A DNA stretch of 60,939 nt from Corallococcus carmarthensis (GTDB taxonomy: Bacteria; Myxococcota; Myxococcia; Myxococcales; Myxococcaceae). Below are positions 35,858 to 56,090 of this stretch, piece by piece (the stretch's first letter is position 1; the number at the start of each line of letters is the position of its first letter). The notes under the pieces are model-generated. The model did no database searches. It saw only the letters and a program-made list of their open reading frames with translations, and was not told where the DNA came from. The stretch lies in contig NZ_RAWE01000038.1 in NCBI RefSeq assembly GCF_003611695.1, positions 1 through 60,939 of the forward strand, in the 5' to 3' direction. Position numbers and translations under genes: made by a program.

Positions 35858-35874
35858 GCCCCATGAGAAGGGGC
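35858..35874 (-). promoter_or_regulatory. Start-codon stem-loop before tail gene 35857
   Basis: On the minus strand GCCCCTTCTCATGGGGC folds into a 5-bp stem with a 7-base loop and is followed directly by ATG. It is the most stable-looking member of the family. Confidence 0.65.
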
Positions 35875-35884
35875 GGGCCAGGCG

Positions 35885-38494
35885 CTACGTGTACCGGGAA
35901 GAGACGGGGGCCGTCGTCCCGTAGAGACGGATGCCGAAGCGCCGCTGAATGTCCTCGGCGCGCTTCTGGGCCTCCTCCATGGCCTCTTCGATGTCGAAGC
36001 CAGTGATGTTGAAGATGAAGCCGAGCGGCGAAGCGCGCGACGTCTCCGGCGCCGTCACCGTGTCCCCACCCGAGGGCGACGGCGGAGGCGTGGACGGCGC
36101 CGGCGCGGCGCCCCCGGTGGACGTGTTCGGCCCGTCCTGCTCGTCCTGCGAGTCGAAGCGCCGGAGGGCCACCTTCCACAAGTCAGGCACGTTGGTGAGC
36201 GCCTCGTTCACGTCCTCAAGGGCATCGCGGTTTTTCAACACTTCGGCCGTCTCCTTCGCCTTGGCCATGGCCGCGTCCCACGTCAGGCCCTCCAGTTCCT
36301 GGATGCTCCGAGCCAGGGACTCCGTGTCCACCTTCGCGGACTCCATCGAATTGGCCCACCCCTTGAGGAAGCCCAGCGGATGCGCGCCCAGGATGCTGAT
36401 GTCGCCCAGCTTCCTGAACACCCACTGCACCGCGCTGACGATGCCGTTCCACGCGGAGCCCAGGCCCTTGATGACGTAGAGGATGGCGATGGCCACGTAG
36501 CGCAACACCTGGAATAGGCCCTTGAGGACGTTGTCGAGGAGCCACGCCGTCGCCTTGCCCACTGCTTGAAACGCGGGCGCGAGCATCCTCAGCACCATGC
36601 CCACCAGGACGATGATGGGAGCGATGGACTCCATCGCCTCGCCCATCGCCTCCATCGTCGGCTGCACGACCTCCACGACCACGGACACCAGGTAGCCGAC
36701 CGCGCCCATGACGGTGTCGAGGCCGGTGGCGGCGGCGCCGAAGAGGTCCTTCAACATCTTGATGATGCCGTTGAGGACATCGATGGCCTCGGCCATTTCG
36801 TCGGATCCCATCACCAGCTCTCCGATGGCAGCCAGGAGCGCGCCCCACCATCCGCCGGCCTCGAACCCCTTCTTCGCGGAGTCGATGATGCCGCTGATTT
36901 CCCCGAGGCGTCCGAGGAATCCGTAGAGCAGGTCCGCCTTCGCAGCAGCTGCAGCGGCGGCGGCTTCCTCGGCGGCCTTGCGAATGGACTCAGCGAGGGC
37001 CTTGGCGTTGTCCTCCATCAGCTTGGCGTAGGCTGCCATGGCCGGAGAGCCCAACCCGCCGCGCAGGCGCTCCGCGAAATGCTCTGTTCCCTTGTGCCCT
37101 GCGGCAGACACCTCAATCCCATTATCGTCCGCTGCGCGCAGCTTTGCTTTGGCGTCCCCGTCGAAGAGCGAGTCGAGCAGGGACTTCAGCTCGCTCATCT
37201 TGCCCGTCCACTCCTCCACCGTCTTCGAGTTGAGGACCGCCGCGACCAGGTCCTTGATGCCAGAGGTGGCGTGCTCCAGCCCGAAGCCCACCGTGTCCTT
37301 TACGGCTCCCGCAGCCTCCTTCGCCCCGTCGGCAGCCTTCGTCGCCAGGAGCACGGCCCCCTTGTTCAACTCCGACGTCGCCTTGTCGAGACCCTCGGTG
37401 GCGGCAGACTTGACGGCGCCCAACGCGGCCTTGATGTCCTCCTTGAGCTTCTTCCCCGTGAGGTCCTCCATCGGCCGCAGCGCGCCCGCGATGCCGTGCA
37501 TCTTGGCTGCCTCGGCAATGGGACGGAGGATGCGGGCGGTACCTCGCACCAGGAAGGCGACGAAGTCGAGAGAGCGGTCCACCATGGCCTCGACAGTTCC
37601 AGCCACTGCGCTGAAGGCGAGGCGGAAGATGTTCGCTAGCCTCGTGCCCAGGTCGCTCAGGCCAGCCATCATCTCGGAGACGGACTGGGCCATCGAGCTC
37701 CAGGCCTCCTTGGCCAGGTACTTGATGTCCCCCCATGACTTGTAGACGCTTCCGACGAGCAGAGCGATGCCCGCAAGCGCGGCGACGACGGCCAGGATGG
37801 GGATGGCGGCAGCCGCGAAGCTGACGGCCATCCGCCCAACGCTGCCGAGGAGGGACGGGACGGACGTTGTGAAGTCCGCCACTGCGGAGCCCAGCCCTCC
37901 GACGCCGGACTTCATGCCGGCCAGCGCCTTGCCGATGTCCACCTGCGCCAGCGCTTGGAGGGACTGAAGGGCCTTGCCCGCGCCCACGCCCAGATGGGTG
38001 AAGACGGGCAGGACGGACTTGCTCATCTCCAGGAAGATGCCGAACCCCTTGAAGAGGCCCTCCATGGTCCCCGCCAGCTTGCCCACGGCGCCGATGCCGA
38101 GGCCCATCCCGGCCACCCACGCGGCCATGCTGGCCACTCCTCGCTTCGTTTCGGGCGAGAGGGATTGGAGCTTCGCCACCACCTGCTCGATGACGTGGGC
38201 GACCTTCTTCACCAGGGGCGCGAAGAGGTCCCCGAGTTCGGCGGCGAGCGTGATGAGCAGCGCCTTGATGTGCTCGGTCTGCTCTTTCATCGCCGCATTG
38301 GATTCGGCGGCGGCCGCAACGGCGGCGGCGATGCCCGCGGCGACGACGGCACCGATGTTCCCGATGGGCTCGGTCGCCTCCTTCACCTGCTTGGTGACCT
38401 TCTCCGCGTGCTTCACGAGCTTGCCCAGCGACGCCACGGCCTCGCCGATGGTCGCGGTGACGGCGACGTAGAGGTCTCCAACCTTCAGGGCCAC
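35885..38494 (-). CDS. Tail tape measure protein
   Basis: An 869-residue protein, the longest in the structural operon and placed just after the G/GT frameshift pair, as in lambda-like phages. It is Ala/Gly-rich and helical, with several hydrophobic stretches (IGAVVAAGIAAAVAAAA, IPILAVVAALAGIALLVGSVY, VLRYVAIAILYVIKG) of the kind that insert into the host membrane on DNA entry. The length would suit a tail of roughly 130 nm by the usual 0.15 nm per residue, which is an inference. The C-terminus is Pro/Ser/Thr-rich. Confidence 0.92.
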   Translation of the reverse strand: MALKVGDLYVAVTATIGEAVASLGKLVKHAEKVTKQVKEATEPIGNIGAVVAAGIAAAVAAAAESNAAMKEQTEHIKALLITLAAELGDLFAPLVKKVAHVIEQVVAKLQSLSPETKRGVASMAAWVAGMGLGIGAVGKLAGTMEGLFKGFGIFLEMSKSVLPVFTHLGVGAGKALQSLQALAQVDIGKALAGMKSGVGGLGSAVADFTTSVPSLLGSVGRMAVSFAAAAIPILAVVAALAGIALLVGSVYKSWGDIKYLAKEAWSSMAQSVSEMMAGLSDLGTRLANIFRLAFSAVAGTVEAMVDRSLDFVAFLVRGTARILRPIAEAAKMHGIAGALRPMEDLTGKKLKEDIKAALGAVKSAATEGLDKATSELNKGAVLLATKAADGAKEAAGAVKDTVGFGLEHATSGIKDLVAAVLNSKTVEEWTGKMSELKSLLDSLFDGDAKAKLRAADDNGIEVSAAGHKGTEHFAERLRGGLGSPAMAAYAKLMEDNAKALAESIRKAAEEAAAAAAAAKADLLYGFLGRLGEISGIIDSAKKGFEAGGWWGALLAAIGELVMGSDEMAEAIDVLNGIIKMLKDLFGAAATGLDTVMGAVGYLVSVVVEVVQPTMEAMGEAMESIAPIIVLVGMVLRMLAPAFQAVGKATAWLLDNVLKGLFQVLRYVAIAILYVIKGLGSAWNGIVSAVQWVFRKLGDISILGAHPLGFLKGWANSMESAKVDTESLARSIQELEGLTWDAAMAKAKETAEVLKNRDALEDVNEALTNVPDLWKVALRRFDSQDEQDGPNTSTGGAAPAPSTPPPSPSGGDTVTAPETSRASPLGFIFNITGFDIEEAMEEAQKRAEDIQRRFGIRLYGTTAPVSSRYT

Positions 38495-38512
38495 GGCATG
38501 ACTCCAGGACTG

Positions 38513-39141
38513 CTACCGCTTCGGCGCGGGCCTCGGGCCGAAGCGGTAGACGGTGGTGTTGGTGGTAGGGCCGCTCGCATGCGCCCGGGTGGGCGACGCG
38601 GCGGAGTGCTGAGGGTTCTGGACGCGGCGGTCGAACTCTTCGCGCTCCAGCTCGCTGTACGCGAGCAGGCGCACGATGTCGGACCAGGGCCAGGTGCTCA
38701 CCTCTGCCGGCGAGCGGTGCATCATCTTCGCCACCCCGTAGATGGCATTCAGCTCGGGGTGGCTTCGGAGTTTCCCTTTTCCTCCTCCACCGTCTTGCCG
38801 CCGAAGCTGGACGTGAACGCCGTCGCGGAGTCGAGGAGCCACGGCTCCAGCTTCACGGCCTCGAGGTCCTCCCGGCTGCCCAGTTCGAAGACGCGGCGCC
38901 GCCCGCCCGGGTGGTACAGGCAGGCGATGGCGACGCGGGCCAGGAAGTAGATGCCGGCGTCCTCGCTGGTGGGGTTGCGGTCCGCGTCGATCTCCCCAGC
39001 CTCCTTGCTCAGCTTCAGCACCAGGGTCTTGTCTCCGGCCGACGGCTCGCAGAGGTCGTAGTCGGCGCCGTCGATGACGAGGCGCTTGATGAACTTCCGG
39101 GCGGTGCCAATGGGCTTGCGGTAGACGGGTGTCTCGCTCAT
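38513..39141 (-). CDS. Tail assembly chaperone G-T fusion by -1 frameshift
   Basis: The 0-frame G protein and the -1 frame T segment join at G-GGA-AAC (38776-38770 on the minus strand). After the slip the frame reads LRSHPELNAIYGVAKMMHRSP and ends at 38513, giving a product of about 209 residues. This is the arrangement of lambda gpG/gpGT and is kept in most long-tailed phages even when sequences differ. GpGT recruits the tape measure to tail tube protein, and the ratio to gpG sets assembly. The T-frame alone has no plausible start (its own ATG lies within G). Confidence 0.85.
38749..39141 (-). CDS. Tail assembly chaperone G
   Basis: A 130-residue product of the unshifted frame (MSETPVYRKPIGTARKF ... 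TVEEEKGNSEATPS). It is an acidic, helical chaperone located between the tail tube and tape measure genes. The last six codons lie after the slippery site. The upstream region contains CTTCTCGGAGAAG, an inverted repeat near the start codon that resembles the prophage start-codon stem-loops. Confidence 0.85.
   Translation of the reverse strand: MSETPVYRKPIGTARKFIKRLVIDGADYDLCEPSAGDKTLVLKLSKEAGEIDADRNPTSEDAGIYFLARVAIACLYHPGGRRRVFELGSREDLEAVKLEPWLLDSATAFTSSFGGKTVEEEKGNSEATPS
38770..38776 (-). other. Programmed -1 frameshift site GGGAAAC
   Basis: Heptamer G-GGA-AAC in the correct X-XXY-YYZ phase of the G reading frame (codons AAG GGA AAC). It sits exactly where the -1 frame opens into the conserved T segment. 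Upstream AAAAG extends the A-rich slippery stretch. Confidence 0.88.
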
Positions 39142-39187
39142 GTCTGTCTTCTCCGAGAAGAGTCCTGCGGTGGAACAGAAGGGGCGG

Positions 39188-39646
39188 CTACACCTTGACG
39201 GGGGCGCCCTGGCCGGTGAGCGAGCACGTCAGCTTGTCCACGTCGGAGGACGGGCCGCCGCTGTCGAAGGACATGACCCTCACCGCGTACCGCACCCCGC
39301 GCTGGCCGGCGGTCGCGTCCTCGTCCTTGATGACGTGCAGGTAGCCCACCTGCCCGGAGAGCATGTGCGTCTCCATCAAGTCCTGCGCGGCGTTGCCCTT
39401 GATGCGGTGCCCGCTGACGTTGAGGGTGAGGCCGCGCAGCGTGGCGAGGTTGCGCTTGAATCCGTCGCTGCCGAAGTAGTTCGCGTCCACGCTGTCGACG
39501 GCCGTGGCGACGCTGCACTCGCTGATGCCGTCCAACTCGGTGGCGGGCGCCTCGACGGTGCCGTCCTCCAGGTTCACGAGGGTGGCCGTGGGCGTGGCGG
39601 TGAAGTGGATGCGCTGCGCGTAGAGGACTTCGGGCTCTCCAGCCAT
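39188..39646 (-). CDS. Major tail tube protein
   Basis: A 152-residue beta-rich protein, right size and place for the tail tube subunit (before the G/GT chaperones, after head-tail joining genes). It has alternating strands (LYAQRIHFTATPTATLVNLEDGT, TLNVSGHRIKGNAAQ, VRYAVRVMSFDSGGPSS). AAAGGA lies in front of the ATG. It stacks in rings to make the tail tube that conducts DNA. Confidence 0.82.
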   Translation of the reverse strand: MAGEPEVLYAQRIHFTATPTATLVNLEDGTVEAPATELDGISECSVATAVDSVDANYFGSDGFKRNLATLRGLTLNVSGHRIKGNAAQDLMETHMLSGQVGYLHVIKDEDATAGQRGVRYAVRVMSFDSGGPSSDVDKLTCSLTGQGAPVKV

Positions 39647-39659
39647 GACTCAATTCCTT

Positions 39660-40106
39660 TCACTTCGGGGGGAACATCTCTTTCAAAGCCTGCTCAAGGG
39701 CCGCCTTCACACCCTTGCGGCCGATGGTGCGGCTGCGGCGGAAGGCCTTCTTGAGGAAGTGCGGCTCCGGGTTGACGATGTCCCGGTCCCAATGCACGCC
39801 CTCATGGATGGCGCCGGCGGCGTGGTGCGCATAGCCCGCCACCCAGGTGACGGAGAGGCGCCGGTCCAGGTGGTACTCGGGCCCGTCCAGGAAGCCGGTC
39901 TCCGCGAGCGGGCGCTCCGAAGGCATCTCGTTCCCGTGCTCGTCGTACTCGACGGAGCGGTCCCCGCGCGGCACGTCGAACAGGGAGAGGTCCAGCGCGT
40001 GGCGCACGGTCGCGTAACAGGGCTTCTCCAGCTTGCGCAGCACGCGCTGCGGCTGCTGGCGCAGCTTGAGGAGCGGGGCGAGGTCGAGCTTCACGCGGAC
40101 GGGCAT
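39660..40106 (-). CDS. Head-tail joining / HK97 gp10-like protein
   Basis: A 148-residue protein from ATG 40106. Its second half (AGYAHHAAGAIHEGVHWDRDIVNPEPHFLKKAFRR) has the [HY]xxxxxEFGT-like exposed loop and the PxPFLxxAF ending seen in gp10-type neck and tail-completion proteins. It lies between the tail terminator candidate and the tail tube gene. A start-codon stem-loop precedes it. Confidence 0.75.
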   Translation of the reverse strand: MPVRVKLDLAPLLKLRQQPQRVLRKLEKPCYATVRHALDLSLFDVPRGDRSVEYDEHGNEMPSERPLAETGFLDGPEYHLDRRLSVTWVAGYAHHAAGAIHEGVHWDRDIVNPEPHFLKKAFRRSRTIGRKGVKAALEQALKEMFPPK

Positions 40107-40123
40107 GTCCCATGAGAAGGGGT
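40107..40123 (-). promoter_or_regulatory. Start-codon stem-loop before gene 40106
   Basis: Minus strand ACCCCTTCTCATGGGAC then ATG: CCC/GGG stem, CTTCTCAT loop. It is almost the same string as at 35858-35874, including the loop, although the coding sequences that follow are unrelated. Confidence 0.6.
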
Positions 40124-40135
40124 GGCCGTCCGGCG

Positions 40136-40540
40136 TCAGGCCGCATAGCTGAGGGTGATGGTGAAGACGAAGCGGTGGCGGTGGTTGCCGTCCTCGCCCA
40201 GGTACGCGGGCTGCCCCTGCGCGCGGCAGGAGACGTAGCTGGGCACGGCGGCCAGGTGCAGCGCGCTCCAGCAGCGCCGGGCCAGGGCCTGGGCCTCCAG
40301 GTACGTGAGGCCGCGCACCAGCACCTGGACGTCCGGCTGGAGGTAGCTGCGCCCCGTGCCCAGGTAGTCCTCGGGCGCGTCGCCCGGCACCTCGCGCACG
40401 GCCACCGCCTGGGGCGGCGCGGTGGCGGGCAGGGGGCCCGTGTAGAGGCTGGGCGGGGACGACGTCCGGGAGACGCCCAGCGCGGCCGCGTCCAGCACCT
40501 GGACCACGTGCAGCTCGACGTCGTGCAGCTCGGCACCCAT
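40136..40540 (-). CDS. Tail terminator / minor capsid-like protein
   Basis: A 134-residue protein from ATG 40540, overlapping the stop of the previous gene (TGATG). The pattern VELHVVQVLDAAALG ... VQVLVRGLTYLEAQALARRCWSALH ... FVFTITLSYA is that of phage minor capsid or tail terminator proteins that cap the tail tube. It is assigned mainly from position and this loose pattern. Confidence 0.65.
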   Translation of the reverse strand: MGAELHDVELHVVQVLDAAALGVSRTSSPPSLYTGPLPATAPPQAVAVREVPGDAPEDYLGTGRSYLQPDVQVLVRGLTYLEAQALARRCWSALHLAAVPSYVSCRAQGQPAYLGEDGNHRHRFVFTITLSYAA

Positions 40541-40860
40541 CAGACGTACACCTCGTAGTGGTCCGTCTCCCCGCGGATGTTGGGGCACGGGGTGACACGC
40601 AGCGGCCGGCGCCGCGTGTTGAGGTCGCCCGGCGTGGTGCCCGGCAGCCAGAGGGCATCCCCGGGCTTCACCTCCACCGTGGTGAAGAGGACGGCCTCCG
40701 AAGTGGCGTCGGTGCCGTCGGAGGTGACGAGGCGCTTCGTGCTGCCCTCGTAGCGGCAGGCGTGCTCGGTGGGCGCGGAGAAGTCCTCCTGCCCGCGGTC
40801 GTTGACGCCCAGCAGCCGCGCCAGGCCGAAGCGCTGCTTGAGGCGGTGGCCCAGCAGCAT
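40540..40860 (-). CDS. Head closure (stopper)-like protein
   Basis: A 106-residue protein that overlaps its neighbours at both ends (TGATG junctions), typical of tightly coupled connector genes. It is beta-rich with ALWLPGTTPGDLNTRRRPLRVTPC. By order (adaptor, stopper, terminator) it is probably the head-closure protein. A database match would be needed for a firm name. Confidence 0.65.
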   Translation of the reverse strand: MLLGHRLKQRFGLARLLGVNDRGQEDFSAPTEHACRYEGSTKRLVTSDGTDATSEAVLFTTVEVKPGDALWLPGTTPGDLNTRRRPLRVTPCPNIRGETDHYEVYV

Positions 40861-41516
40861 CACGCCGCTCCCTGGCGCGGGCGGCGGTACCGGGCCACCA
40901 GGCGCCGCGCGCGGGCGGGCACCGCCGGCAGCTGCCCGTCTTCGTCCGTGGCGCGCGTCAGGGAGGTGCCGCCAATGGACTCGGAGACGGCCTCCTCGGC
41001 GCCGTCCCCGTGCACCAGCGCGCCCACCACCATCTGCGCCGCCAGCTGGAGGTCCGCCGGCAGGTCCACCTGCAGCGCGGTGTCCAGGGCGGCCTGGCCG
41101 GGCGTCACCCAGCCCGCGTCGTAGGTGACGACGAGCTCGCCCGTGTCCTCCACGTGCAGCGGGGTGGAGGAGACGCCGGGCGAGTAGCGGCCGGTGAAGG
41201 GCCACGCCTCGCCGCGCGCCAGCACCCGGCCCATGACGGCGGACTCCAGCGCGTACGCGGCGGCCGGCAGCTCCACGCCGCACACCTCCACGCGCGTCAC
41301 CTGGCGCACGCCCCCGGAGCGCAGCCAGAGGTAGCGCCCGCCCGCGCTGGCCACCGACTCCACCACGCCCATGCGCCGGTGAAGCGGGTAGCCCACGTGC
41401 GCGGCCAGCGTCAGGGACGCGGCGGTGATGAGCAGCGGCAGGCGCTCGGGGTCGGCCGCGTCGCGCACGGTGGCGGGCAGCTGGGCGGCGGTGAGCAGGT
41501 CCTCGACGGCAGGCAT
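40860..41516 (-). CDS. Head-tail connector (adaptor, gp6-like)
   Basis: A 218-residue protein. It starts with helices (VEDLLTAAQLPATVRDAADPERLPLLITAASLTLAAHVGYPL), has a central beta hairpin (LVVTYDAGWV) and C-terminal helices (PADLQLAAQMVVGAL). This is the layout of phage gp6/SPP1 gp15-type adaptors that dock under the portal. A diverged GCCGCCCC...TTTCTGCCCC stretch lies upstream. Confidence 0.72.
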   Translation of the reverse strand: MPAVEDLLTAAQLPATVRDAADPERLPLLITAASLTLAAHVGYPLHRRMGVVESVASAGGRYLWLRSGGVRQVTRVEVCGVELPAAAYALESAVMGRVLARGEAWPFTGRYSPGVSSTPLHVEDTGELVVTYDAGWVTPGQAALDTALQVDLPADLQLAAQMVVGALVHGDGAEEAVSESIGGTSLTRATDEDGQLPAVPARARRLVARYRRPRQGAA

Positions 41517-41601
41517 AGGCACCTCGGGGCAGAAAGAGGGCCGGGGCGGCGCGAGGCCGCCCCGGCCCGAGCAGGCACGGGAGGGGAGGGCGTGCCCGCC
41601 G

Positions 41602-43325: not shown

Positions 43326-43338
43326 GAGAAGGGGCGGC
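43326..43338 (-). promoter_or_regulatory. GCCGCCCCTTCTC element in capsid leader
   Basis: It lies immediately after the TAG of the protease gene and 45 bases before the capsid ATG. Here the GGGC partner is not next to the ATG, so this copy keeps only the conserved 5' arm. Confidence 0.5.
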
Positions 43339-44415: not shown

Positions 44416-44432
44416 GCCCAGGGAGAAGGGGC
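44416..44432 (-). promoter_or_regulatory. Start-codon stem-loop before prohead protease
   Basis: Minus strand GCCCCTTCTCCCTGGGC followed directly by ATG: 4-bp GCCC/GGGC stem and 9-base loop. It starts 11 bases after the portal stop codon. Confidence 0.65.
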
Positions 44433-44443
44433 GGCGCCCGTCG

Positions 44444-45808: not shown

Positions 45809-45825
45809 GCCCTAAGACAAGGGGT
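45809..45825 (-). promoter_or_regulatory. Start-codon stem-loop before portal gene
   Basis: Minus strand ACCCCTTGTCTTAGGGC then ATG: CCC/GGG stem. The loop differs by one base in the CTTCT core (CTTGT). It precedes the portal ATG although the operon is interrupted upstream. Confidence 0.55.
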
Positions 45826-45924
45826 GGTCCATGCCGCGTGCGAGGCGGATACGCTCAAAATGCCATCAGCCACACTCAGACTGACCACGCTGAAGCTCAC
45901 GTGGCGCTCTGCTATGGTGCGGCA

Positions 45925-46806: not shown

Positions 46807-46808
46807 TG

Positions 46809-48338: not shown

Positions 48339-48355
48339 GCCCTCCGAGAAGGGGC
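48339..48355 (-). promoter_or_regulatory. Start-codon stem-loop before terminase large subunit
   Basis: Minus strand GCCCCTTCTCGGAGGGC then ATG. GCCC/GGGC stem, and GGAGGG within it is the only Shine-Dalgarno. It begins two bases after the TerS stop codon. Confidence 0.65.
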
Positions 48356-48357
48356 GG

Positions 48358-48924: not shown

Positions 48925-48940
48925 GCCTTCCAGAAGGGGC
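48925..48940 (-). promoter_or_regulatory. Start-codon stem-loop before terminase small subunit
   Basis: Minus strand GCCCCTTCTGGAAGGC then ATG. Here CCTTC pairs directly with GAAGG (loop of two bases plus flanks), so the pyrimidine arm covers the ribosome site completely. Confidence 0.6.
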
Positions 48941-49208
48941 GCCAGTGCGCGCGCGCTTCGAGGCGCCCGAGCCCACATGCGAGCGCAGAAGACGCGCCAG
49001 CGGGCCGCCAGGAACGCGCAGAGCCCAAAAAATCAGGGGGTCGTCTCAGAGATCGCCGGGGATTTCCGGGAGATTTCCGCAGCGCAGGATTGCAGCGCGC
49101 CGAGCAATCCTTCCGGCAGGCGCAGATGTGGGTTTCCCACCCCAGGGGGAGGGGTCACCTATTCAATGGGGTTGTAATGTGCCCTTGTCCTACATGCCCC
49201 TGCCCCGG

Positions 49209-49471: not shown

Positions 49472-49977
49472 GTGTGACCCCTTGCCGAGGGAGAGGTCGA
49501 ACGCTCGGCTTAATCGTTTAGCGAGGCGCCCCGATACTGTGCAGGTGGGTGCTGTGCTTACCGCTCCGCGAATTGAACGGTGGCGCCGGCTGGAGCGCGA
49601 CCCATGAGGCCGGGCGGGCAGCGCCTGGGTGCCACCGACTACGACGCGGAGGACAACCCCATCCCGTGAACGTGGCCTGGATGAGGCGCACCAGCGGCGG
49701 GCGGACATCGGTGTCGTGCATGCCCGGGTGGAAGGGGTGTCTCTCCGCGTGGTGGCCCGATCATCGAATGCATTCATTTCGTCAGTCGGCCCCGTGCACG
49801 CGACCAGCGCGGACGCCTCCAGGTGGGTGGACTACTTTCGGTGCCCGTGCCCGGACCTAGTCCACTCAGGGGTGCCGTCCCTCTGGCGCCGAGTTGGACT
49901 GGTCCGGAGGCACTCCCGACTTCCAGTCCAGTGGGCGGTGGCGAAGTCGCGCGGCATGGGCGCCCCTTCTCCCGGGC
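49472..49977. other. Stretch without a firm gene
   Basis: About 500 bases between divergent transcription units. On the plus strand a 120-codon frame (49629-49991) has a fairly protein-like middle part (HQRRADIGVVHARVEGVSLRVVARSSNAFISSV), but its start and end are poor and it runs through the stem-loop at 49962. It may be a decayed gene. Promoters for both directions must lie here. Confidence 0.45.
49962..49977 (+). promoter_or_regulatory. Start-codon stem-loop before leader ORF 49978
   Basis: GCCCCTTCTCCCGGGC followed directly by ATG; GCCC/GGGC stem. It precedes a 9-codon ORF and not the real gene. Confidence 0.62.
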
Positions 49978-50007
49978 ATGACCAAGCATGAGGGGAGCCG
50001 CGGATGA
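49978..50007 (+). CDS. Nine-residue leader ORF coupled to next gene
   Basis: ATG directly after the stem-loop, encoding MTKHEGSRG and stopping at TGA 50005-50007. The stop overlaps the ATG of the 70-residue gene (ATGA at 50004). AGGGGAGCC inside the leader is the ribosome site of that gene. Probably a translational-coupling leader, with no product function assumed. Confidence 0.5.
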   Translation: MTKHEGSRG

Positions 50008-50700: not shown

Positions 50701-50753
50701 GGCTCGGATTCACGAATTACGAAATCCGTTAAGCCGTGCCTCGGCGGGGAGGC

Positions 50754-50770
50754 GCCCCTTCTGTCCGGGC
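50754..50770 (+). promoter_or_regulatory. Start-codon stem-loop before gene 50771
   Basis: GCCCCTTCTGTCCGGGC then ATG; 4-bp stem, 9-base loop. The loop CTTCTGTCC recurs at 56077-56085. Confidence 0.65.
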
Positions 50771-51160
50771 ATGCCCCCCATGAGTCCTGAGTTCGCCGCC
50801 GTCCTCGTCCTGGCCGTGAGCCAGCTCCTCGTGCCGCTCCTCAACGGACTGCTGTCACGCCGGCAGACGAAGCACGAAGCCGCCGTGGATCAGGTGCCGC
50901 TGCTCGTGCAGTCCCTGACCGCGGTGGCGCAGGACGTGCGCGACATCAAGGCCGACCTGCGCGTGGTGAACGAGCACGGCGCGAAGCTCCAGACGCAGGA
51001 CCTGCGACTCCGGGCCCTGGAGGACTGGATGGGCACCGCACGGCCGCAGCTGCACCAGGTGGTGAACCACGTCACGGTACTGATGGGGGAGCGCACCTCT
51101 CGGCAGCTCCAGCATGCCGCGAACGCGGTGGCCAAGGACACGGGCTCTGGCATCCCGTGA
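50771..51160 (+). CDS. Membrane-anchored coiled-coil protein (holin/spanin-like)
   Basis: A 129-residue protein with an N-terminal membrane segment (FAAVLVLAVSQLLVPLLNGLL, about 7-27), then a long amphipathic helix with heptads (VPLLVQSLTAVAQDVRDIKADLRVVNEHGAKLQTQDLRLRALEDWM). The form suits an i-spanin or a holin-family protein (for example phage_holin with coiled coil) acting with the endolysin gene further on. Its last part is polar. Confidence 0.68.
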   Translation: MPPMSPEFAAVLVLAVSQLLVPLLNGLLSRRQTKHEAAVDQVPLLVQSLTAVAQDVRDIKADLRVVNEHGAKLQTQDLRLRALEDWMGTARPQLHQVVNHVTVLMGERTSRQLQHAANAVAKDTGSGIP

Positions 51161-51257
51161 AAGGCCATCGAGTCGGCACCATGCCGGGCGTGCCCGTGTT
51201 GGGTAGTCAGACGCATTGCGCAGCGGCTCGCAGGCAATACGGGTACGGGCCCATTTG

Positions 51258-52055
51258 CTAGCACGAGAGCGGGTGCCGCTCGAATCGCACCGTTGACTCC
51301 TCTGTAAGAAACATCCGCGCCCGCCGTTCCACCCGTTCAACCTGAGTGGCGCAGTCATATATGAGCACTTCGCATGGGTTCTCGCTTTTGTGCTCACCGA
51401 GACCAACGCTCAGGATGTGCCCAAGCTCCGCGTCGAGCGCAGAGAGACTCAGTCCGTAGATGACGAGCCTTGGAGCCTTTGCAATGTATTTCCACATTGT
51501 CGTGATCCGGAGCGCCATCTCAGCTCGCTCTGCATCCGGCCTGAACGGCTCTTCTGTCCATTCGCTCGGAAGGTAAAGGAGCGATGGATTTGCAATGCTT
51601 CCATGGATATGCAGAATCGCTGATGGCGAACAAATATCCTTCTCGAGGAGCATGTCCCAGTTGGCGGTTATGAATATGTGCTTTCCCCAATGGCCGTTCC
51701 TGTAAATGTCTACAAACTCCTTCCGAAGGTGCAGTTCTCGCCGCTCTGTTGCGTCGCCAAGGTGCCGTGAGATGGACTTTTTTAGTGACAAGTCGAATTC
51801 CGACCACTGTGTTATCAGCTGGTTGTTGATGGTCTGATCGATCTTTTCATGTCGCCTGTTCTGTTCGAGGAATCGCCTCTGGTAGACGTGGGTAGCGAAA
51901 AAGTAGTTTGCCGCGTCGGGGTCAGTCCCAACGTGCGCTTCTGGTCTGAACTCGTTGATTGCTGAGAGGACCGGCGCCCATCCATTCTTGTCGATGCCAG
52001 AGCCGACAAGAAATACGGTATCGAGGCTTGGGACTTCGTTGGGCTCTGTTCTCAA
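51258..52055 (-). CDS. SIR2-like protein, prophage moron
   Basis: A 265-residue protein from TTG 52055 (AAGG at good spacing); a TTG at 52142 would add 29 residues. It has the marks of the SIR2 NAD-binding fold: VFLVGSGID near 14-22 for the GAG loop, FITANWDMLLE (129-138) for the TNYD motif, LHIHGSI (148-154) with the likely catalytic His, and LVIYGLSLSALDAELGHIL for the late GxS region. In antiphage proteins this fold destroys NAD+ on infection. The gene is opposite in direction to its neighbours and AT-richer, so it was probably acquired as a unit. No partner domain (TIR, STAND, Argonaute) is fused or adjacent. Confidence 0.78.
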   Translation of the reverse strand: MRTEPNEVPSLDTVFLVGSGIDKNGWAPVLSAINEFRPEAHVGTDPDAANYFFATHVYQRRFLEQNRRHEKIDQTINNQLITQWSEFDLSLKKSISRHLGDATERRELHLRKEFVDIYRNGHWGKHIFITANWDMLLEKDICSPSAILHIHGSIANPSLLYLPSEWTEEPFRPDAERAEMALRITTMWKYIAKAPRLVIYGLSLSALDAELGHILSVGLGEHKSENPCEVLIYDCATQVERVERRARMFLTEESTVRFERHPLSC

Positions 52056-52193
52056 TCTGGTGCCTTGTGTGTTGGTTTGGTTGCTGGGTGCGCTCTGAAA
52101 CGGTCGCTGGAGGCCGCAGCCCCCACATTCATCCCAAGTCAATGGGCGTGCCGCTTCGCGAGAATAGCGCCGCCAGTCGTGCGAGCCAAAAGC

Positions 52194-52208
52194 GCCCCTT
52201 CTCCGGTG
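52194..52208 (+). promoter_or_regulatory. Weak stem-loop copy before endolysin gene
   Basis: GCCCCTTCTCCGGT with GTG overlapping its 3' arm. GCC pairs with GGT through a G-U. The overlapped GTG opens a 21-codon out-of-frame ORF, and the endolysin GTG is 27 bases further on, with GGAG in front of it. Confidence 0.4.
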
Positions 52209-52234
52209 AACACCCGAAGTCCCCGGAGCCCGCC

Positions 52235-52726
52235 GTGCCCATCATCACCTCGCAGCGCGCCGCCTTCCTAGCCATCGTCCTCGCGCAGATGCACGCGCCC
52301 TACCGCTGGGGCGCGAAGGGCGCGCTGGTCTCGAAGGATGGCGCGCGCCTCTTCGACTGCTCCGGCCTCGTGACGTGGGCCTTCCACCAGGTGGGCGGGA
52401 AGGACTGGCGGGCGACGCACAACACGGACCGGTTGTGGGCGGAGTGCGTGCCGGTGGCGATCGCGGCGGACCTGCAGCCCGGGGACCTGGTGCTGTACGG
52501 CCGCGCGGGCCACACGACGCTGCACGGCAGCCCGCCGACCGATGTGGACCCGAACCACGTCATGGTGCACGTAGGCGCGGGCGTGGTGGTGGGCGCGTCC
52601 GGAGGCGGCAGCAAGACACTCACGCTGGAGGATGCGGCGCGCGATGACGCGAAGGTGAAGGCCTTCACCCGCGTGACGTACCGGCCGGACGTGCTGGGCT
52701 TCCGGCGCCTGCCCTTCGTCTCCTGA
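52235..52726 (+). CDS. NlpC/P60 peptidoglycan hydrolase (endolysin)
   Basis: A 163-residue cell-wall amidase/endopeptidase with the NlpC/P60 catalytic Cys42 (FDCSGLVTWAF), a His in DPNHVMVHVG, and PGDLVLYG before it. It cuts peptide bonds in peptidoglycan, here for host lysis. No signal peptide, so export needs a holin. GTG 52235 with GGAG seven bases upstream is the chosen start. The stop overlaps the next ATG. Confidence 0.88.
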   Translation: MPIITSQRAAFLAIVLAQMHAPYRWGAKGALVSKDGARLFDCSGLVTWAFHQVGGKDWRATHNTDRLWAECVPVAIAADLQPGDLVLYGRAGHTTLHGSPPTDVDPNHVMVHVGAGVVVGASGGGSKTLTLEDAARDDAKVKAFTRVTYRPDVLGFRRLPFVS

Positions 52727-53025
52727 TGGGCTCGCCTCCTCGATGCCGCCTGTGTGGCAAGCGCCTGGGCCAGTGCGACCATCCGCGCTGGTTGCCGCGC
52801 CGCCCCTTCCTGCTGGTGCCGTGCAGTCCACCCGCACGCAACAACGCGCAGCATGAGCGCTTACTGCAATCAGGGCAGTGTGAAGCCTTGGGGAACGCAA
52901 TACGTGCTCAGGGAGGGCTGATAGAACCAACAGCTCGTGTCTGGAGGACAATCTCCCCCATATACCCATGCCCCCTGGGCGTTACAGACCAGCCACCCAC
53001 CACTACCTGGTGCGCATGCGTATGA
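52726..53025 (+). CDS. Small zinc-finger-like protein, doubtful 3' part
   Basis: The frame starts with ATG overlapping the endolysin stop. Residues 1-40 (PPRCRLCGKRLGQCDHPRWLPRRPFLLVPC) contain four cysteines in a zinc-knuckle pattern. The rest overlaps the antisense secreted-protein gene and looks poor. Either the protein is really this long or the frame is partly spurious. Confidence 0.4.
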   Translation: MGSPPRCRLCGKRLGQCDHPRWLPRRPFLLVPCSPPARNNAQHERLLQSGQCEALGNAIRAQGGLIEPTARVWRTISPIYPCPLGVTDQPPTTTWCACV

Positions 53026-53169
53026 GATGGGCGTGCAGGCTCCCCCTACTACTTGGCCGGACGTGGCGCTTTCCTTCTGGCCGGCCTCCGTTGGCGCTCC
53101 GTAATTTGGGGTCGACGGCTGAAATGCAAGGATACCTAGGACAGCCAGCAGGATTGAAGCTGTTCGCAT
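52870..53169 (-). CDS. Secreted cysteine-containing small protein
   Basis: A 99-residue protein with an export signal (MRTASILLAVLGILAFQPS), then six cysteines (GACTPISYACAPGSGGWLVCNAQGAWVYGGDCPPDTSCWFYQPSLSTYC) that look like disulfide-bonded loops, similar in style to myxobacterial envelope proteins. It runs against the lysis genes and is a likely moron. Function is unknown. Confidence 0.62.
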   Translation of the reverse strand: MRTASILLAVLGILAFQPSTPNYGAPTEAGQKESATSGQVVGGACTPISYACAPGSGGWLVCNAQGAWVYGGDCPPDTSCWFYQPSLSTYCVPQGFTLP

Positions 53170-53223
53170 GATCCGCTCCTTCAGGCGCTTGGCCGTTCAG
53201 CGGCGGCGAAGCGCCGTTGGCTG

Positions 53224-53436
53224 ATGGCCACGTTGGCACATAGCATCGGCCGCGCCGTCCACAACCAGCACGGCATCCTGGTGTGCGCGGCGGACATCAC
53301 GGTCGTCAACAGCTACGGCTCCGTGGCCCTGCTCGTGAAGCCGCCCAACGCGCTGCCCTTCCCGGTGAGCATGGCCCGCCAGGCGGCCACCGAGGCGCCC
53401 ATGGACGGCTGCTGGAACTGGATGCCGCGCGTCTGA
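53224..53436 (+). CDS. Small prophage protein, 70 residues
   Basis: MATLAHSIGRAVHNQHGILVCAADITVVNSYGSVALLV ... AATEAPMDGCWNWMPRV. Compact, with a plausible beta-hairpin core and two cysteines. It ends just before the element in front of the next membrane protein (TGA followed by GCCGCCCCTTCT). Not recognised. Confidence 0.55.
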   Translation: MATLAHSIGRAVHNQHGILVCAADITVVNSYGSVALLVKPPNALPFPVSMARQAATEAPMDGCWNWMPRV

Positions 53437-53437
53437 G

Positions 53438-53478
53438 CCGCCCCTTCTGCGTGGTGCAGTCCCACTCGCACCACGCAG
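53438..53478 (+). promoter_or_regulatory. GCCGCCCCTTCT element plus 11-bp hairpin
   Basis: Directly after the TGA of the previous gene comes GCCGCCCCTTCTG. A perfect stem CTGCGTGGTGC (53447-53457) / GCACCACGCAG (53468-53478) follows, ending at the GGAG ribosome site of the gene starting at 53489. A diverged relative of the same string lies at 52800-52852. Confidence 0.65.
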
Positions 53479-53488
53479 GAGCAGCACC

Positions 53489-54103
53489 ATGAAGAAGCGC
53501 CTCACCATCGTCACCACCGCCGCGCTCGCGGCCATCCTCACCGCGCCCCTGGCTCTGGCCCAGTCGTCCACGCCCACCAGCGCGGAGCTGGCCCCCGTCT
53601 CCGCTCCCGTCGCGCTCGCCACCCTGGACGCCGCGCCGGCCGTCCTGGCCCAGGTGTCCGCCGGGGCCGGCGGTAGCTCCTGGAAGGAGCTGCTCACGCC
53701 CACCAACATCGGCATCGGCATCGGCGCGATCACCGGCATCCTCGGCCTGTTCGCGGGGGGATGGTCCTGGCTCACCGCGAAGCGCAAGCGCATCGTCGCG
53801 ACCGTGGCCTTCCACGCCTTCCATGTGGTGGAGGACTTCGCCGCGATGGACGAGGAGGAGAACGCCCTCGACAAGGTGGCCAAGGGCCTGGAGGTGGCGG
53901 ACTCCTGGCTGAAGGCCAATGGCTGGCGCCCGCTGAAGGCCTGGGAGCAGGAGGCGGTGAAGCTGGAGTTCGCCTCCATCCACGGCGCGCAGAAGGCCGA
54001 CGTGAAAGTGCGCGCGGAGGCGCTGGAGCTGGCGCTGGGCGCCATCGGCAGCACCGCCGCGCTGGAGCCGGTCGCCACGGCGGCGGTGGCGTCGGTCCCT
54101 TAG
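53489..54103 (+). CDS. Exported membrane protein of the lysis block
   Basis: A 204-residue protein with signal peptide MKKRLTIVTTAALAAILTAPLALAQ, an Ala/Pro/Val-rich spacer, and one membrane segment (IGIGIGAITGILGLFAGGWSWL, about 73-94). A cytoplasmic-looking helical domain follows (HVVEDFAAMDEEENALDKVAKGLEVADSWLKANGWRPLKAWEQ). It could be a holin or a virion membrane protein. The last ~40 residues are Ala-rich. It is preceded by a strong hairpin and followed by another at 54106. Confidence 0.65.
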   Translation: MKKRLTIVTTAALAAILTAPLALAQSSTPTSAELAPVSAPVALATLDAAPAVLAQVSAGAGGSSWKELLTPTNIGIGIGAITGILGLFAGGWSWLTAKRKRIVATVAFHAFHVVEDFAAMDEEENALDKVAKGLEVADSWLKANGWRPLKAWEQEAVKLEFASIHGAQKADVKVRAEALELALGAIGSTAALEPVATAAVASVP

Positions 54104-54105
54104 AT

Positions 54106-54133
54106 GCCCCGCGGCGTGAAGTCGCCGCGGGGC
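54106..54133 (+). terminator. 11-bp hairpin after gene 53489-54103
   Basis: Perfect stem GCCCCGCGGCG / CGCCGCGGGGC with a 6-base loop, starting three bases after the stop codon. There is no T-run. It may be a partial terminator or protect the 3' end. Confidence 0.55.
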
Positions 54134-54141
54134 TGTCGCGG

Positions 54142-54333
54142 GTGCTGAGCGATGTGCCGGTGAAGTCCGGCTACCTGGAGGCCTCCGCTGGTGCCTCTTC
54201 CCTCACGGGCGCCTACGCGCGCCTAGAGGGTGGGGCGAGGCTCCGGCAGGACCTGGGCCTCTTCGCCTTCGCAGAGGCCAACCAGCGGGAGCGGATGGTC
54301 GGCGCCGGCATGCGGTGGACGTTCGGCTGGTGA
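54142..54333 (+). CDS. Possible small beta-barrel-like protein
   Basis: About 63 residues from GTG 54142 (later GTGs are possible): SDVPVKSGYLEASAGASSLTGAYARLEGGARLRQDLGLFAFAEANQRERMVGAGMRWTFGW. The alternating strands and aromatic final residue look like the end of an outer-membrane barrel. The start is not clear, and it could be the 3' remnant of a longer gene. Confidence 0.45.
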   Translation: MLSDVPVKSGYLEASAGASSLTGAYARLEGGARLRQDLGLFAFAEANQRERMVGAGMRWTFGW

Positions 54334-54367
54334 CGCAGATTTCGTTGTGCGCTGGTCCAGAAATAAT

Positions 54368-54398
54368 GAGGCCCGCTCCGTTGTGACGGGCGGGCCTC
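54368..54398 (+). terminator. Rho-independent terminator of plus-strand lysis block
   Basis: Stem GAGGCCCGC / GCGGGCCTC, with an inner CCGT/ACGG stem and TGTG loop, followed by TAGTGTCTTGGTTTT. This is the clearest terminator in the prophage and closes the plus-strand block that starts near 50 kb. Confidence 0.85.
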
Positions 54399-54424
54399 TA
54401 GTGTCTTGGTTTTAGGCGCTACGC

Positions 54425-54568
54425 TTACTGAGGCTCGTGGCCAGGGTGGTAGTAGTTGAATACCACCAGGATTGAGCCATCAGGCATCCGGCGGTTCTCG
54501 GACACCTTCACCAAACTTCCGGTGATTGGCTGACTGCATGCTGCGCACTTCGCTTTGATTTTAATCAT
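54425..54568 (-). CDS. 47-residue CxxC protein
   Basis: MIKIKAKCAACSQPITGSLV ... VVFNYYHPGHEPQ. Cys8-x2-Cys11 and the late His pair may bind one zinc, so it is a miniature zinc finger. AGGAGAAGTA gives a very strong ribosome site, and the whole 54.4-54.65 kb patch is AT-richer than the rest. Possibly a host-takeover protein; function unknown. Confidence 0.68.
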   Translation of the reverse strand: MIKIKAKCAACSQPITGSLVKVSENRRMPDGSILVVFNYYHPGHEPQ

Positions 54569-54651
54569 TACTTCTCCTAATTGGTTAGTTGTTATTGGTG
54601 CTGCGTGGGGGATTATGCCACATCTTTTCAGAGGTTGCAAGGTCCTTGGAG

Positions 54652-55044
54652 TTATGATGGCGCGCTGAATCCTTGCACCTCGTGACTGGGCAGGGCGTCC
54701 TGGTGGGCGATAGCCCCAACTGCTCCCATCCACGCGCCGCAGGTGGCGCAGAGGTAGATGCGGCAGCCGCCGGCCAGGACCTGGGCGGCCACCTCCGGAT
54801 GCAGCACCAGCAGGTCGAGCGCTCCGGACGGATGGGCGCGCGGGATGCCGGCACGGCGGAGTTGGGCCGCGAGGGCTTCCACCCGAGTCCATGCGGCTCG
54901 GGAGAGGTGCAGTCCGTCGATGCGGACGGTGCTCCCAGCGGGCGCCTTGCGCCGCTCCGGGGGCGTCTTCGTCTTGTCGTGGGTGGGCACCGGGCGGACT
55001 TCGCACGCACGGGCACGGGAGCCAAGGGACAGGCGGGGCGGCAT
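54652..55044 (-). CDS. Hypothetical prophage protein with CxxC
   Basis: Up to 130 residues. The middle part (STVRIDGLHLSRAAWTRVEALAAQLRRAGIPRAHPSGALDLLVLHPEVAAQVL) is protein-like and is followed by YLCATCGAWMG. The first ~20 residues are doubtful, so the true start may be the GTG near 54990. The gene is divergent from the methyltransferase. Confidence 0.5.
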   Translation of the reverse strand: MPPRLSLGSRARACEVRPVPTHDKTKTPPERRKAPAGSTVRIDGLHLSRAAWTRVEALAAQLRRAGIPRAHPSGALDLLVLHPEVAAQVLAGGCRIYLCATCGAWMGAVGAIAHQDALPSHEVQGFSAPS

Positions 55045-55108
55045 CCCTCGTGCACCACGCGCGCGCGTGGTGCGACCCTCGCTCCACGCCCCCGACGAGG
55101 CCCCCAGA

Positions 55109-55813
55109 GTGAAGTCCTACTTCCAGACCGACACCGTCACCCTGTTCCACGCCGACTGCCGAGACGCACTGGCCGGACTCCCGTCCGAATCCGTGGACGT
55201 GCTGCTCACCGACCCACCCTACGGGATGGCCTACGAGGCCAAGGGGAAGAGCGGCGCCGCCATTCGCGCGGACGGCTCCCGCCAGGGCATGCGCGTCTTC
55301 CGCCAGGCGCTCACGGCTGCGGGCCCCGCGCTGAAGCCGGACCTGCACGCCTTCGTCTTCTGCCACTGGGAGAGCTGGCCGGACTTCTTCGACGCGGCCA
55401 GCGCCCACCTGAAGATCAAGGGCGCGCTGATGTGGTGGAAGGCGCGCGGCGGCATGGGTGACTGCGCCGCCAGCTTCGCGCCGGACTACGAGGTGGTGTT
55501 GCACGGGGCCGGGCCAACGCGCCGCGCGCTCGCTGGCAAGCGGCACGGCGCCGTCCTCGATGGCTACCCGCCGGTGCCCGCGCGTGCGCGCACGCACCCC
55601 ACCGAGAAGCCGGTCAACCTGCTGAGCTACCTGCTGGAGCGCTCCTGCCCCGCGGGCGGACTCGTCCTGGATCCGTTCGCCGGCAGCGGGGCGACGCTGG
55701 TGGCCGCCCAGCAGCTCGGGCTGCGCGCCGTGGGCGTGGAGCTCGAGGAGCGCTACTGCGAGGCCGCCGCCCGCCGACTGGAGGCTGGCACCGCCCTGTC
55801 CCTCGCGGCCTGA
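55109..55813 (+). CDS. Site-specific DNA methyltransferase (beta class)
   Basis: A 234-residue enzyme. DPPY (35-38, LLTDPPYGMAYE) comes before the SAM-binding FAGSG (LDPFAGSGATL, near 187), the order of beta-class N6-adenine/N4-cytosine methyltransferases. RTHPTEKPVNLLSYLLE is also conserved in the group. No restriction enzyme lies beside it, so it is probably an orphan that protects phage DNA or affects packaging or regulation. GTG 55109 with GAGG upstream was taken as the start. Confidence 0.88.
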   Translation: MKSYFQTDTVTLFHADCRDALAGLPSESVDVLLTDPPYGMAYEAKGKSGAAIRADGSRQGMRVFRQALTAAGPALKPDLHAFVFCHWESWPDFFDAASAHLKIKGALMWWKARGGMGDCAASFAPDYEVVLHGAGPTRRALAGKRHGAVLDGYPPVPARARTHPTEKPVNLLSYLLERSCPAGGLVLDPFAGSGATLVAAQQLGLRAVGVELEERYCEAAARRLEAGTALSLAA

Positions 55814-55818
55814 GTCCC

Positions 55819-56028
55819 CTACGCGCTGAGGTGCTCCACAACCTCCAGCGCCACGCGTGCGCCGAGCACCTGCTGGGCGTGGTGCTCGGCCGCGCGGTAC
55901 TCAATCCTTGCTGCTTCCAGCCGTGTCCGCGCGGCTGGACTTCCGTCCGACTCACGCTGCGCCCGCTGCAACTCCAGCTCCGCCCGCCCCAGGCGCCTCG
56001 CGAGCGCCTCCCTCGTCGTCGTGTCCAT
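55819..56028 (-). CDS. Small coiled-coil protein
   Basis: A 69-residue helical, highly charged protein (ALARRLGRAELELQRAQRESDGSPAARTRLEAARIEYRAAEHHAQQVL). It occupies the gap between the methyltransferase and RusA genes on the other strand. No strong ribosome site. It could be a small structural or inhibitor protein. Confidence 0.5.
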   Translation of the reverse strand: MDTTTREALARRLGRAELELQRAQRESDGSPAARTRLEAARIEYRAAEHHAQQVLGARVALEVVEHLSA

Positions 56029-56073
56029 GTGGCCAGGGGAAGAGCAGGAGGCGTGCCGCCAACTCGTCGCGCC

Positions 56074-56090
56074 GCCCCTTCTGTCCAGGC
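56074..56090 (+). promoter_or_regulatory. Start-codon stem-loop before leader ORF 56091
   Basis: GCCCCTTCTGTCCAGGC then ATG; GCC/GGC stem with the CTTCTGTCC loop shared with 50754-50770. Confidence 0.6.

What the first reader, a model, noticed from the sequence alone, without database searches (positions are those of the whole stretch)
35858..56090. Recurrent stem-loop (GCCCCTTCT-N-GGGC) locked to start codons across the prophage
The same small hairpin ends within two bases of the start codon at 48925, 48339, 45809, 44416, 40107 and 35858 (minus strand) and at 31933, 49962, 50754 and 56074 (plus strand), with partial copies at 43326, 52194, 53438 and near 52801. The stem is GCCC/GGGC and the loop begins CTTCT. 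The coding sequences that follow are unrelated, so it is not carried by gene duplication. The GGGC/GGAGGG arm is the only Shine-Dalgarno at several of these genes and is paired with a CCUUCU arm that resembles the 16S rRNA 3' end. That suggests a shared translational switch, or a binding site for a phage protein. A promoter read by the phage sigma-like factor is the main rival idea. In the 28 kb of host DNA I noticed only one chance AGAAGGGG, inside a gene.
Basis: partly seen in the sequence, partly recalled or inferred. Interest (0 to 1): 0.9.

Follow-up and report, generated by a model that had tools for sequence, protein, structure and literature searches.

The report
Likely leaderless late promoters in myxophages
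A ten-letter DNA signal sits at a fixed distance before many virus genes hidden in myxobacterial genomes; it is probably not an RNA hairpin but a promoter read by the virus's own sigma factor, making messages that begin right at the start codon.

Summary
The repeat is real, enriched and prophage-specific. Across about 30 related myxobacterial prophages it is C[A/G]CCCCTTCT. It ends 7-8 nt before the start codon ('near') or 17 nt or more upstream, usually with a Shine-Dalgarno ('far'); at 221 homology-defined starts, 137 elements lie at 7-8 nt (101), 9-16 nt (0) and 17-51 nt (36). In the 10.8-Mb host genome CGCCCCTTCT-N7/8-ATG occurs 16 times, all in two prophage contigs. The hairpin is not conserved: the GGGC arm drifts with almost no compensation. 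At near genes the element occupies the Shine-Dalgarno place. Far sites show a pyrimidine-purine step where near sites have C|ATG, as expected of a transcription start. No -35 element was seen. The prophages encode a divergent sigma-70-family protein; of 96 family genomes, 19 have both motif cluster and sigma, 2 cluster only, 3 sigma only. Best explanation: single-element late promoters for the phage sigma, giving leaderless mRNAs at near sites and Shine-Dalgarno leaders at far sites. Promoter activity, start sites and sigma recognition are inferred, not shown. Closest described: phage Start-Associated Sequences (placement), T4- or AR9-type late promoters (mechanism).

The parts
48932..48941 (-). 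near element CGCCCCTTCT, 7 nt before ATG 48924 (small terminase)
   Evidence: orthologues near in 26 of 26
48347..48356 (-). near element, 8 nt before ATG 48338 (large terminase)
   Evidence: orthologues near in only 4 of 26
45817..45826 (-). near element CACCCCTTGT, 8 nt before ATG 45808 (portal)
   Evidence: orthologues near in 28 of 28 with one-base variants allowed, 27 of 28
44424..44433 (-). near element, 8 nt before ATG 44415 (head maturation protease)
   Evidence: orthologues near in 22 of 26
43327..43336 (-). far element, 45 nt before ATG 43281 (major head protein), leader with GGAG
   Evidence: orthologues far with Shine-Dalgarno in 12 of 18, far without in 1
40115..40124 (-). near element CACCCCTTCT, 8 nt before ATG 40106
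   Evidence: orthologues near in 18 of 18
   Evidence: orthologues far with Shine-Dalgarno in 4 of 12
35866..35875 (-). near element, 8 nt before ATG 35857 (gene after the tape measure)
   Evidence: orthologues near in 6 of 14
49730..49739 (-). near element CACCCCTTCC, 8 nt before ATG 49721 (67-aa frame); new
   Evidence: a similar start (CGCCCCTTCT, ATGCACGAC) in L362
49961..49970 (+). near element, 7 nt before ATG 49978, which opens a 9-codon frame; predicted gene starts at 50004
50753..50762 (+). near element, 8 nt before ATG 50771
   Evidence: orthologues near in 13 of 17
52193..52202 (+). far element, 32 nt before GTG 52235 (NlpC/P60 protein), leader with GGAG
   Evidence: not counted, which used the wrong start 51959 for this gene
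53439..53448 (+). far element, 40 nt before ATG 53489, leader with a hairpin and AGGAG
   Evidence: orthologues far with Shine-Dalgarno in 4 of 4
56073..56082 (+). near element, 8 nt before ATG 56091, which opens an 8-codon frame; rusA-like gene from GTG 56114
   Evidence: in L040 the ATG opens a long frame; orthologues near in 3 of 7
31932..31941 (+). variant far-type element CGCCCCTTCC, 17 nt before ATG 31959, with GGAGGAGGG
   Evidence: orthologues: near 2, far 3, none 2 of 7
52801..52810 (+). variant element CGCCCCTTCC, no clear start assigned
56799..57809 (+). phage sigma-70-family protein, proposed reader of the element
   Evidence: PHROG sigma factor 2.6e-10; 24-member profile matches RpoS chains, best 3.1e-13; Foldseek prob 1.00 to sigma factors, low TM-scores

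Best explanation
C[A/G]CCCCTTCT is a single-element late promoter (in the place of a -10, with no -35) used by RNA polymerase carrying the prophage-encoded sigma-70-family protein. Transcription starts 7-8 nt downstream. At near sites that base is the A or G of the start codon, so the mRNA is leaderless and needs no Shine-Dalgarno. At far sites it lies in the gap, and the gene has an untranslated leader with a normal Shine-Dalgarno. The GGGC before ATG is read as a discriminator/initiator, under strongest selection where the RNA end must be exact. Shown: sequence, spacing, class structure, lack of hairpin conservation and of a visible -35, prophage specificity, linkage to the sigma gene. Inferred: promoter activity, start point, sigma recognition, leaderless translation, late timing.
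For: (1) Two distance classes with an empty gap. At 221 homology-defined starts (no Shine-Dalgarno required) 137 have an element of at least 9/10 within 4-75 nt: 7 nt 35, 8 nt 66, 9-16 nt 0, 17-51 nt 36. Among exact 10-mers: 6-8 nt 151, 9-18 nt 0, 19-70 nt 54, but there far was defined by a Shine-Dalgarno-like run, and one of the 11 unclassified sites has a GTG at 17 nt. A leader of a few nt would be neither leaderless nor able to hold a Shine-Dalgarno. (2) Far genes do have a Shine-Dalgarno: 24 of 28 with homology-defined starts. Near genes have a Shine-Dalgarno-like run at -15..-4 in 15 of 151; motif-less orthologous genes in 75 of 106. The lack at near genes follows partly from the element filling that place. 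(3) In 36 non-redundant far sites, pyrimidine-purine is at its maximum (21 of 36, 58%) at the step where near sites with 7-nt spacing have C|ATG; the other 19 positions range 6-42%. 20 of 34 without the two mini-frame sites, p=3.7e-6 against the mean 0.22, position chosen after looking. (4) The far sites keep the CR prefix (54 of 59) although only 3 of 54 have the GGGC arm. (5) The set includes terminase, portal, protease, capsid, some tail genes and an NlpC/P60 gene. It is absent before the sigma gene (0 of 6), the methylase (0 of 3), and two genes at the left end of the element (0 of 2, 0 of 1). (6) A divergent sigma-70-family protein is encoded. In 96 family genomes: both 19, cluster only 2, sigma only 3, neither 72. 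All 20 viral contigs found by the sigma carry the motif. (7) Two sigma loci found by protein alone, outside the strict-motif clusters, were each flanked by a prophage with the 10-mer (4 and 9 copies; expected about 0.1 per 19 kb).
Against: CCCCTTCT is GC-rich and unlike any -10 I know of (recalled). The sigma keeps a region-4-like part (6 of 24 members match Pfam Sigma70_r4), yet no -35 is seen. The linkage of sigma and motif may be common descent, since both travel in one prophage lineage, and many viral contigs are the same prophages as the genome loci. GGG is much stronger in near than far sites, which a promoter model explains only through the need for an exact start. Several structural genes mostly lack the element: terL 4 of 26 near, tape measure 3 of 18, major tail protein 1 of 13, tail gene 32614 2 of 12. 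G016 and G059 have motif clusters without the sigma (terL broken in G016, no terL found in 54 kb of G059). G025:C4, G025:C195 and G061:C251, with the sigma at or near a contig end, hold 0, 0 and 1 copies, and the G076 sigma fragment has none nearby. I saw no report of leaderless translation in myxobacteria in the titles and abstract starts listed (8 of 14 papers shown in the latter). No RNA data were available.
Confidence: 0.72

Rival explanations
1. The element acts in RNA by sequence, not structure: an RNA-binding protein or sequence-specific endonuclease recognises CRCCCCUUCU in longer transcripts and cuts 7-8 nt downstream, making leaderless or trimmed mRNAs, or controls access to the start codon.
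For: Same spacing and class data; copies are co-directional with genes and often just after the upstream stop codon.
Against: Needs an extra upstream promoter and an unidentified factor, whereas a sigma factor is encoded and linked. The pyrimidine-purine step at the predicted 5' end is typical of transcription starts.
Confidence: 0.12
2. A DNA operator for a phage repressor or activator (as the stoperators of Cluster A mycobacteriophages), placed in short intergenic gaps.
For: Short, asymmetric, repeated, prophage-specific, co-directional with genes.
Against: Does not explain the exact 7-8 nt spacing to the start codon or the empty 9-16 nt range.
Confidence: 0.09
3. One reading: a GCCC/GGGC hairpin that hides the Shine-Dalgarno or resembles the end of 16S rRNA.
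For: Many near copies can form a 4-bp stem (85 of 149); slight excess of paired cells over shuffles (72 of 2000 shuffles reach it).
Against: Among 123 sites the only pairs kept through changes on both sides are two A-T and one T-G at the outer pair; arm present at 3 of 54 far sites; GGGC lies at -4..-1, too close to serve as Shine-Dalgarno, and the usual Shine-Dalgarno place is filled by CCCCTTCT.
Confidence: 0.05

Closest known systems
Start-Associated Sequences (SAS) of Cluster K mycobacteriophages and Cluster EF Microbacterium phages (PMC3203893, PMC7302621; passages read)
   Same: Short, well-conserved asymmetric repeat with G/C-rich outer parts, locked to start codons of unrelated phage genes, mostly one orientation; nearly absent from the mycobacterial hosts examined.
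   Different: SAS (GGGATAGGAGCCC, GGGAAAGGACCCC) sits in the Shine-Dalgarno place and contains AGGAG or AGGA; Cluster K SAS lies among non-structural genes. Here the element is pyrimidine-rich, has no Shine-Dalgarno, serves many structural genes, and has a far class with separate Shine-Dalgarno.
Phage T4 late promoters (TATAAATA, read by gp55/gp33/gp45; consensus recalled; gp33/gp55/gp45 roles seen in passages of PMC11598898)
   Same: Short single element, no -35, scattered before many late genes, phage-encoded sigma-like factor.
   Different: AT-rich element; gp55 is small and lacks region 4 (recalled); T4 late mRNAs generally have Shine-Dalgarno leaders (recalled).
Phage AR9 late promoters AACA-(6N)-TA/G (PMC5312081, passages read)
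   Same: Short element followed by 6 nt and a pyrimidine-purine start.
   Different: Read by a phage multisubunit polymerase; AR9 leaders are 26-491 nt.
Predicted leaderless SigA promoters of Cluster O mycobacteriophages (PMC4351075, passages read)
   Different: SigA-like -35/-10 promoters of the host; only a few per genome.

Membership tests
Phage late promoter read by a phage sigma factor | Conserved element at fixed distance from the transcription start | tested here: inconclusive
   Fixed distance to C|ATG or a pyrimidine-purine step; 5' ends not mapped
Phage late promoter read by a phage sigma factor | Phage-encoded sigma factor present | tested here: met
   missing in two degenerate motif-bearing prophages
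Phage late promoter read by a phage sigma factor | Element placed before late (structural, lysis) genes and not before the sigma gene | tested here: met
   terL and tape-measure orthologues mostly lack their own element
Phage late promoter read by a phage sigma factor | Sigma needed for transcription from the element | not testable with these tools
   needs in vitro transcription or a deletion
Leaderless genes | No Shine-Dalgarno before the start codon | tested here: met
   0 of 151 near sites at -17..-6 (largely because the element fills it), 15 of 151 at -15..-4
Leaderless genes | mRNA 5' end at the start codon | not testable with these tools
   no RNA-seq
Start-Associated Sequence (SAS) | Contains the Shine-Dalgarno core at ribosome-binding position | tested here: not met
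   position occupied by CCCCTTCT
Start-Associated Sequence (SAS) | Conserved repeat within a few nt of start codons in one orientation | tested here: met
RNA hairpin operator or translational switch | Stem kept by compensatory changes | tested here: not met
Stoperator | Repressor-binding site ending transcription elongation | not testable with these tools
   no binding data; fixed spacing to ATG argues against

The most novel reading that the evidence does not exclude
A promoter and a start codon fused into one unit: a GC-rich 10-bp element read by a divergent phage sigma fixes the transcription start on the A of ATG at many late genes, so that much of a siphophage's late regulon is translated from leaderless mRNAs, by-passing the Shine-Dalgarno route in hosts for which I saw no report of leaderless translation.
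Probability: 0.5. Interest if true: 0.72.

Novelty: new variant of a known kind. Interest (0 to 1): 0.58.

Why it matters
If right, it defines the late regulon and its switch in a lineage of myxobacterial prophages for which I found no close isolated relative, with a promoter that is neither AT-rich nor bipartite, and a simple system to study leaderless translation outside actinobacteria. It also offers a testable model (promoter position against Shine-Dalgarno position) for the unexplained start-locked repeats described in other phages.

Tried and rejected
Hairpin: tested by covariation on octamer-defined sites, on orthology-defined sites and on a portal alignment (MAFFT left the 7- and 8-nt spacers out of register and three rows were offset, so not used for counts).

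A -35 element: no conserved upstream position and no k-mer above shuffles (mono-nucleotide shuffles only).

Isolated relatives: against 50,697 phage records terL matched 87, all below 60% identity (32.5% for the top-listed; 30 of 87 rows seen), the portal two partial matches, the sigma none. A distant terL relative (L302, 30%) has one 10-mer that is not at a gene start: chance.

Host use: the copy CCCCTTCTACGTGGGCATG, once in each of several genomes of the genus, lies outside motif clusters and was not pursued. N7 spacers look like chance in coding DNA (impression, not tested).

Errors of mine: alignment A1 held one host-like sigma (L068; RpoH-like by its sequence) and one row with a long false extension (L105). 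The AlphaFold model, the Foldseek search on it and the first PDB profile search rest on A1; the cleaned A4 repeats only the PDB-sequence and Pfam searches. L073, without phage homologues, was among the 33 loci. One search used a wrong start for the NlpC/P60 gene (2 of 2 'none').
Full report
The window lies in a 10.8-Mb, 530-contig genome. From about 28.5 to 58 kb lies a siphophage-type prophage: small and large terminase, portal, head protease, major head protein, tape measure and tail proteins, major tail protein, methylase, RusA, sigma factor, NlpC/P60 protein and a weak integrase match beside a tmRNA gene.

Observation. CCCCTTCT occurs 15 times against 1.63 expected. Related prophages sharpen it to C[A/G]CCCCTTCT. 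Genome-wide, CGCCCCTTCT-N7/8-ATG occurs 16 times, 7 here and 9 on a second prophage contig, none elsewhere; the reversed pattern gives 2. CCCCTTCTN{3,4}GGGCATG is found in 37 of 147 genomes searched by class, often in groups on one contig; the reversed pattern has 6 hits in all.

Related prophages. Stretches around the groups were fetched and compared with window proteins: full-length terL identities run from 54 to 99%, one partial match 47%, so the set is diverse. Upstream of orthologous starts most sequence diverges except this element. With starts set by homology (262 starts) the near form is found at terS 26 of 26, portal 28 of 28, gene 40106 18 of 18, protease 22 of 26, gene 50771 13 of 17; the far form with Shine-Dalgarno at the capsid gene 12 of 18 and gene 53489 4 of 4. 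It is absent at sigma (0 of 6) and methylase (0 of 3), and mostly absent at terL (4 near of 26; in many relatives terL starts at the end of terS), tape measure (3 of 18), major tail protein (1 of 13) and tail gene 32614 (2 of 12).

Two classes. Of 239 octamers in 33 loci, 218 carry the CR prefix. After removal of duplicates, CR sites are near 151, far 54, other 11; non-CR sites are near 1, far 5, other 15. Far was there defined by a Shine-Dalgarno-like run before the start, so a check without that rule was made: of 221 homology-defined starts, 137 have an element of at least 9/10 within 4-75 nt, at 7 nt 35, 8 nt 66, 9-16 nt 0, 17-51 nt 36. With homology-defined starts 24 of 28 far genes have a Shine-Dalgarno-like run. 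Near starts are ATG 138, GTG 13; far ATG 43, GTG 11.

No hairpin. Among 149 near sites the base 5' of CCCC is G or A independently of the base at -1 (p=0.63), and 85 of 149 keep all four pairs. Among 123 distinct orthology-defined sites, paired cells are 77.8% observed, 76.8% shuffled (72 of 2000 shuffles reach it); fully paired 41.5% against 37.6% (123 of 2000); two sites show A-T and one T-G for the outer G-C, no other pair is kept through changes on both sides. This slight excess is told as it is; relatedness is not corrected for. GGGC stands at -4..-1 in 94 of 151 near sites, but at the same place in 3 of 54 far sites (GGG[C/T] in 11 of 54).

Why a promoter. In near sites the element fills the place where a Shine-Dalgarno would be: 15 of 151 have a Shine-Dalgarno-like run at -15..-4, against 75 of 106 motif-less orthologous genes. 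If transcription starts on the A of ATG none is needed. In far sites, where no start codon lies there, the pyrimidine-purine step typical of transcription starts is most frequent (21 of 36) at that distance; other positions run 6-42%; 20 of 34 without the two mini-frame sites. The 9-16 nt gap fits too, as such leaders would be too short for a Shine-Dalgarno. No -35 was found.

The sigma. Window 56799-57809 matches a PHROG sigma family and, just below its cut-off, Pfam region 2. A cleaned 24-member alignment matches RpoS chains at 3.1e-13 over profile positions 39-249 of 267; 17 of 24 members match Pfam Sigma70_r2 and 6 of 24 r4 at E 0.01. The model (pLDDT 77, pTM 0.42; made from the uncleaned A1) finds sigma factors in the PDB with probability 1.00 but low TM-scores, 0.27/0.33 for the best hit, so only the fold family and not the domain arrangement is supported. 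It is found at E 1e-12 in 22 of 195 genomes searched by phylum, all in this family. In the family, motif cluster and sigma: both 19, cluster only 2 (G016, G059: degenerate prophages), sigma only 3 (G024 and G063, whose prophages do hold the 10-mer by relaxed count; G076, a fragment), neither 72; Fisher 5e-15, not corrected for common descent. All 20 viral contigs recovered by the sigma carry the motif, 19 by the strict pattern and one by 10-mer count. Of 25 viral loci recovered by terL, the 24 with 56% identity or more hold 3 to 11 10-mers, the reversed 10-mer 0 or 1; 10 of the 25 stretches (12-21 kb) include the sigma. Many of these contigs are the same prophages as the genome loci (equal lengths, for instance 29,279 and 43,238 bases), so they are not independent. 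As a forward test, two sigma loci outside strict-motif clusters were opened: the flanks held a prophage with 4 and with 9 10-mers. Other sigma loci opened in that call held 0 (G025:C4, G025:C195, G076) or 1 (G061:C251).

How it most likely works. Early or middle transcription makes the sigma; core polymerase with this sigma starts at many single-element promoters before late genes; near promoters give leaderless mRNAs, far promoters leadered ones. Timing, recognition and start sites are inferred. The strongest unexplained point is why GGG before ATG is so much stricter in near sites; my reading is that a leaderless mRNA needs an exact 5' end.

Known relatives. Start-Associated Sequences of Cluster K and EF phages (passages of PMC3203893, PMC7302621) look most alike in placement, but contain a Shine-Dalgarno core. 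T4 late promoters (recalled, with gp33/gp55/gp45 from passages of PMC11598898), phage K late promoters without a -35 (PMC11598898, passages) and AR9 late promoters (PMC5312081, passages) are nearest in mechanism. The 2018 review of Myxococcus phages (PMC6070905) holds neither 'promoter' nor 'sigma' as a word start in its main text. In the listings (titles and abstract starts; some lists cut, for instance 12 of 431) I saw no paper on this element; that covers only that library.

Noticed in passing
28172-28533 and 28470-29774: A tmRNA gene (tag ANDNVELALAA) overlaps the end of an integrase-like gene on the other strand, so the prophage probably sits in the 3' end of ssrA.
   Followed up: partly
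53449-53488: The leader before gene 53489 has its own hairpin (GCGTGGTGC...GCACCACGC) next to AGGAG; in L064 and L067 a hairpin of different sequence holds the same place, a better candidate for a structured leader than the reported repeat.
   Followed up: no
56700-56798: A block ending CCAGTATACCGCCCCTGCGCGC just upstream of the sigma gene is conserved in several relatives; in L049 it forms a long inverted repeat. Possible control site of the sigma gene.
   Followed up: no
49978-50007 and 56091-56117: The ATG after two near elements opens 9- and 8-codon frames whose stop overlaps the start of the predicted gene (ATGA, GTGA); in L040 the second opens a long frame through rusA.
   Followed up: partly
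L045 (G016): A motif-bearing prophage with a stop inside terL and no sigma found: apparently a decaying remnant.
   Followed up: partly
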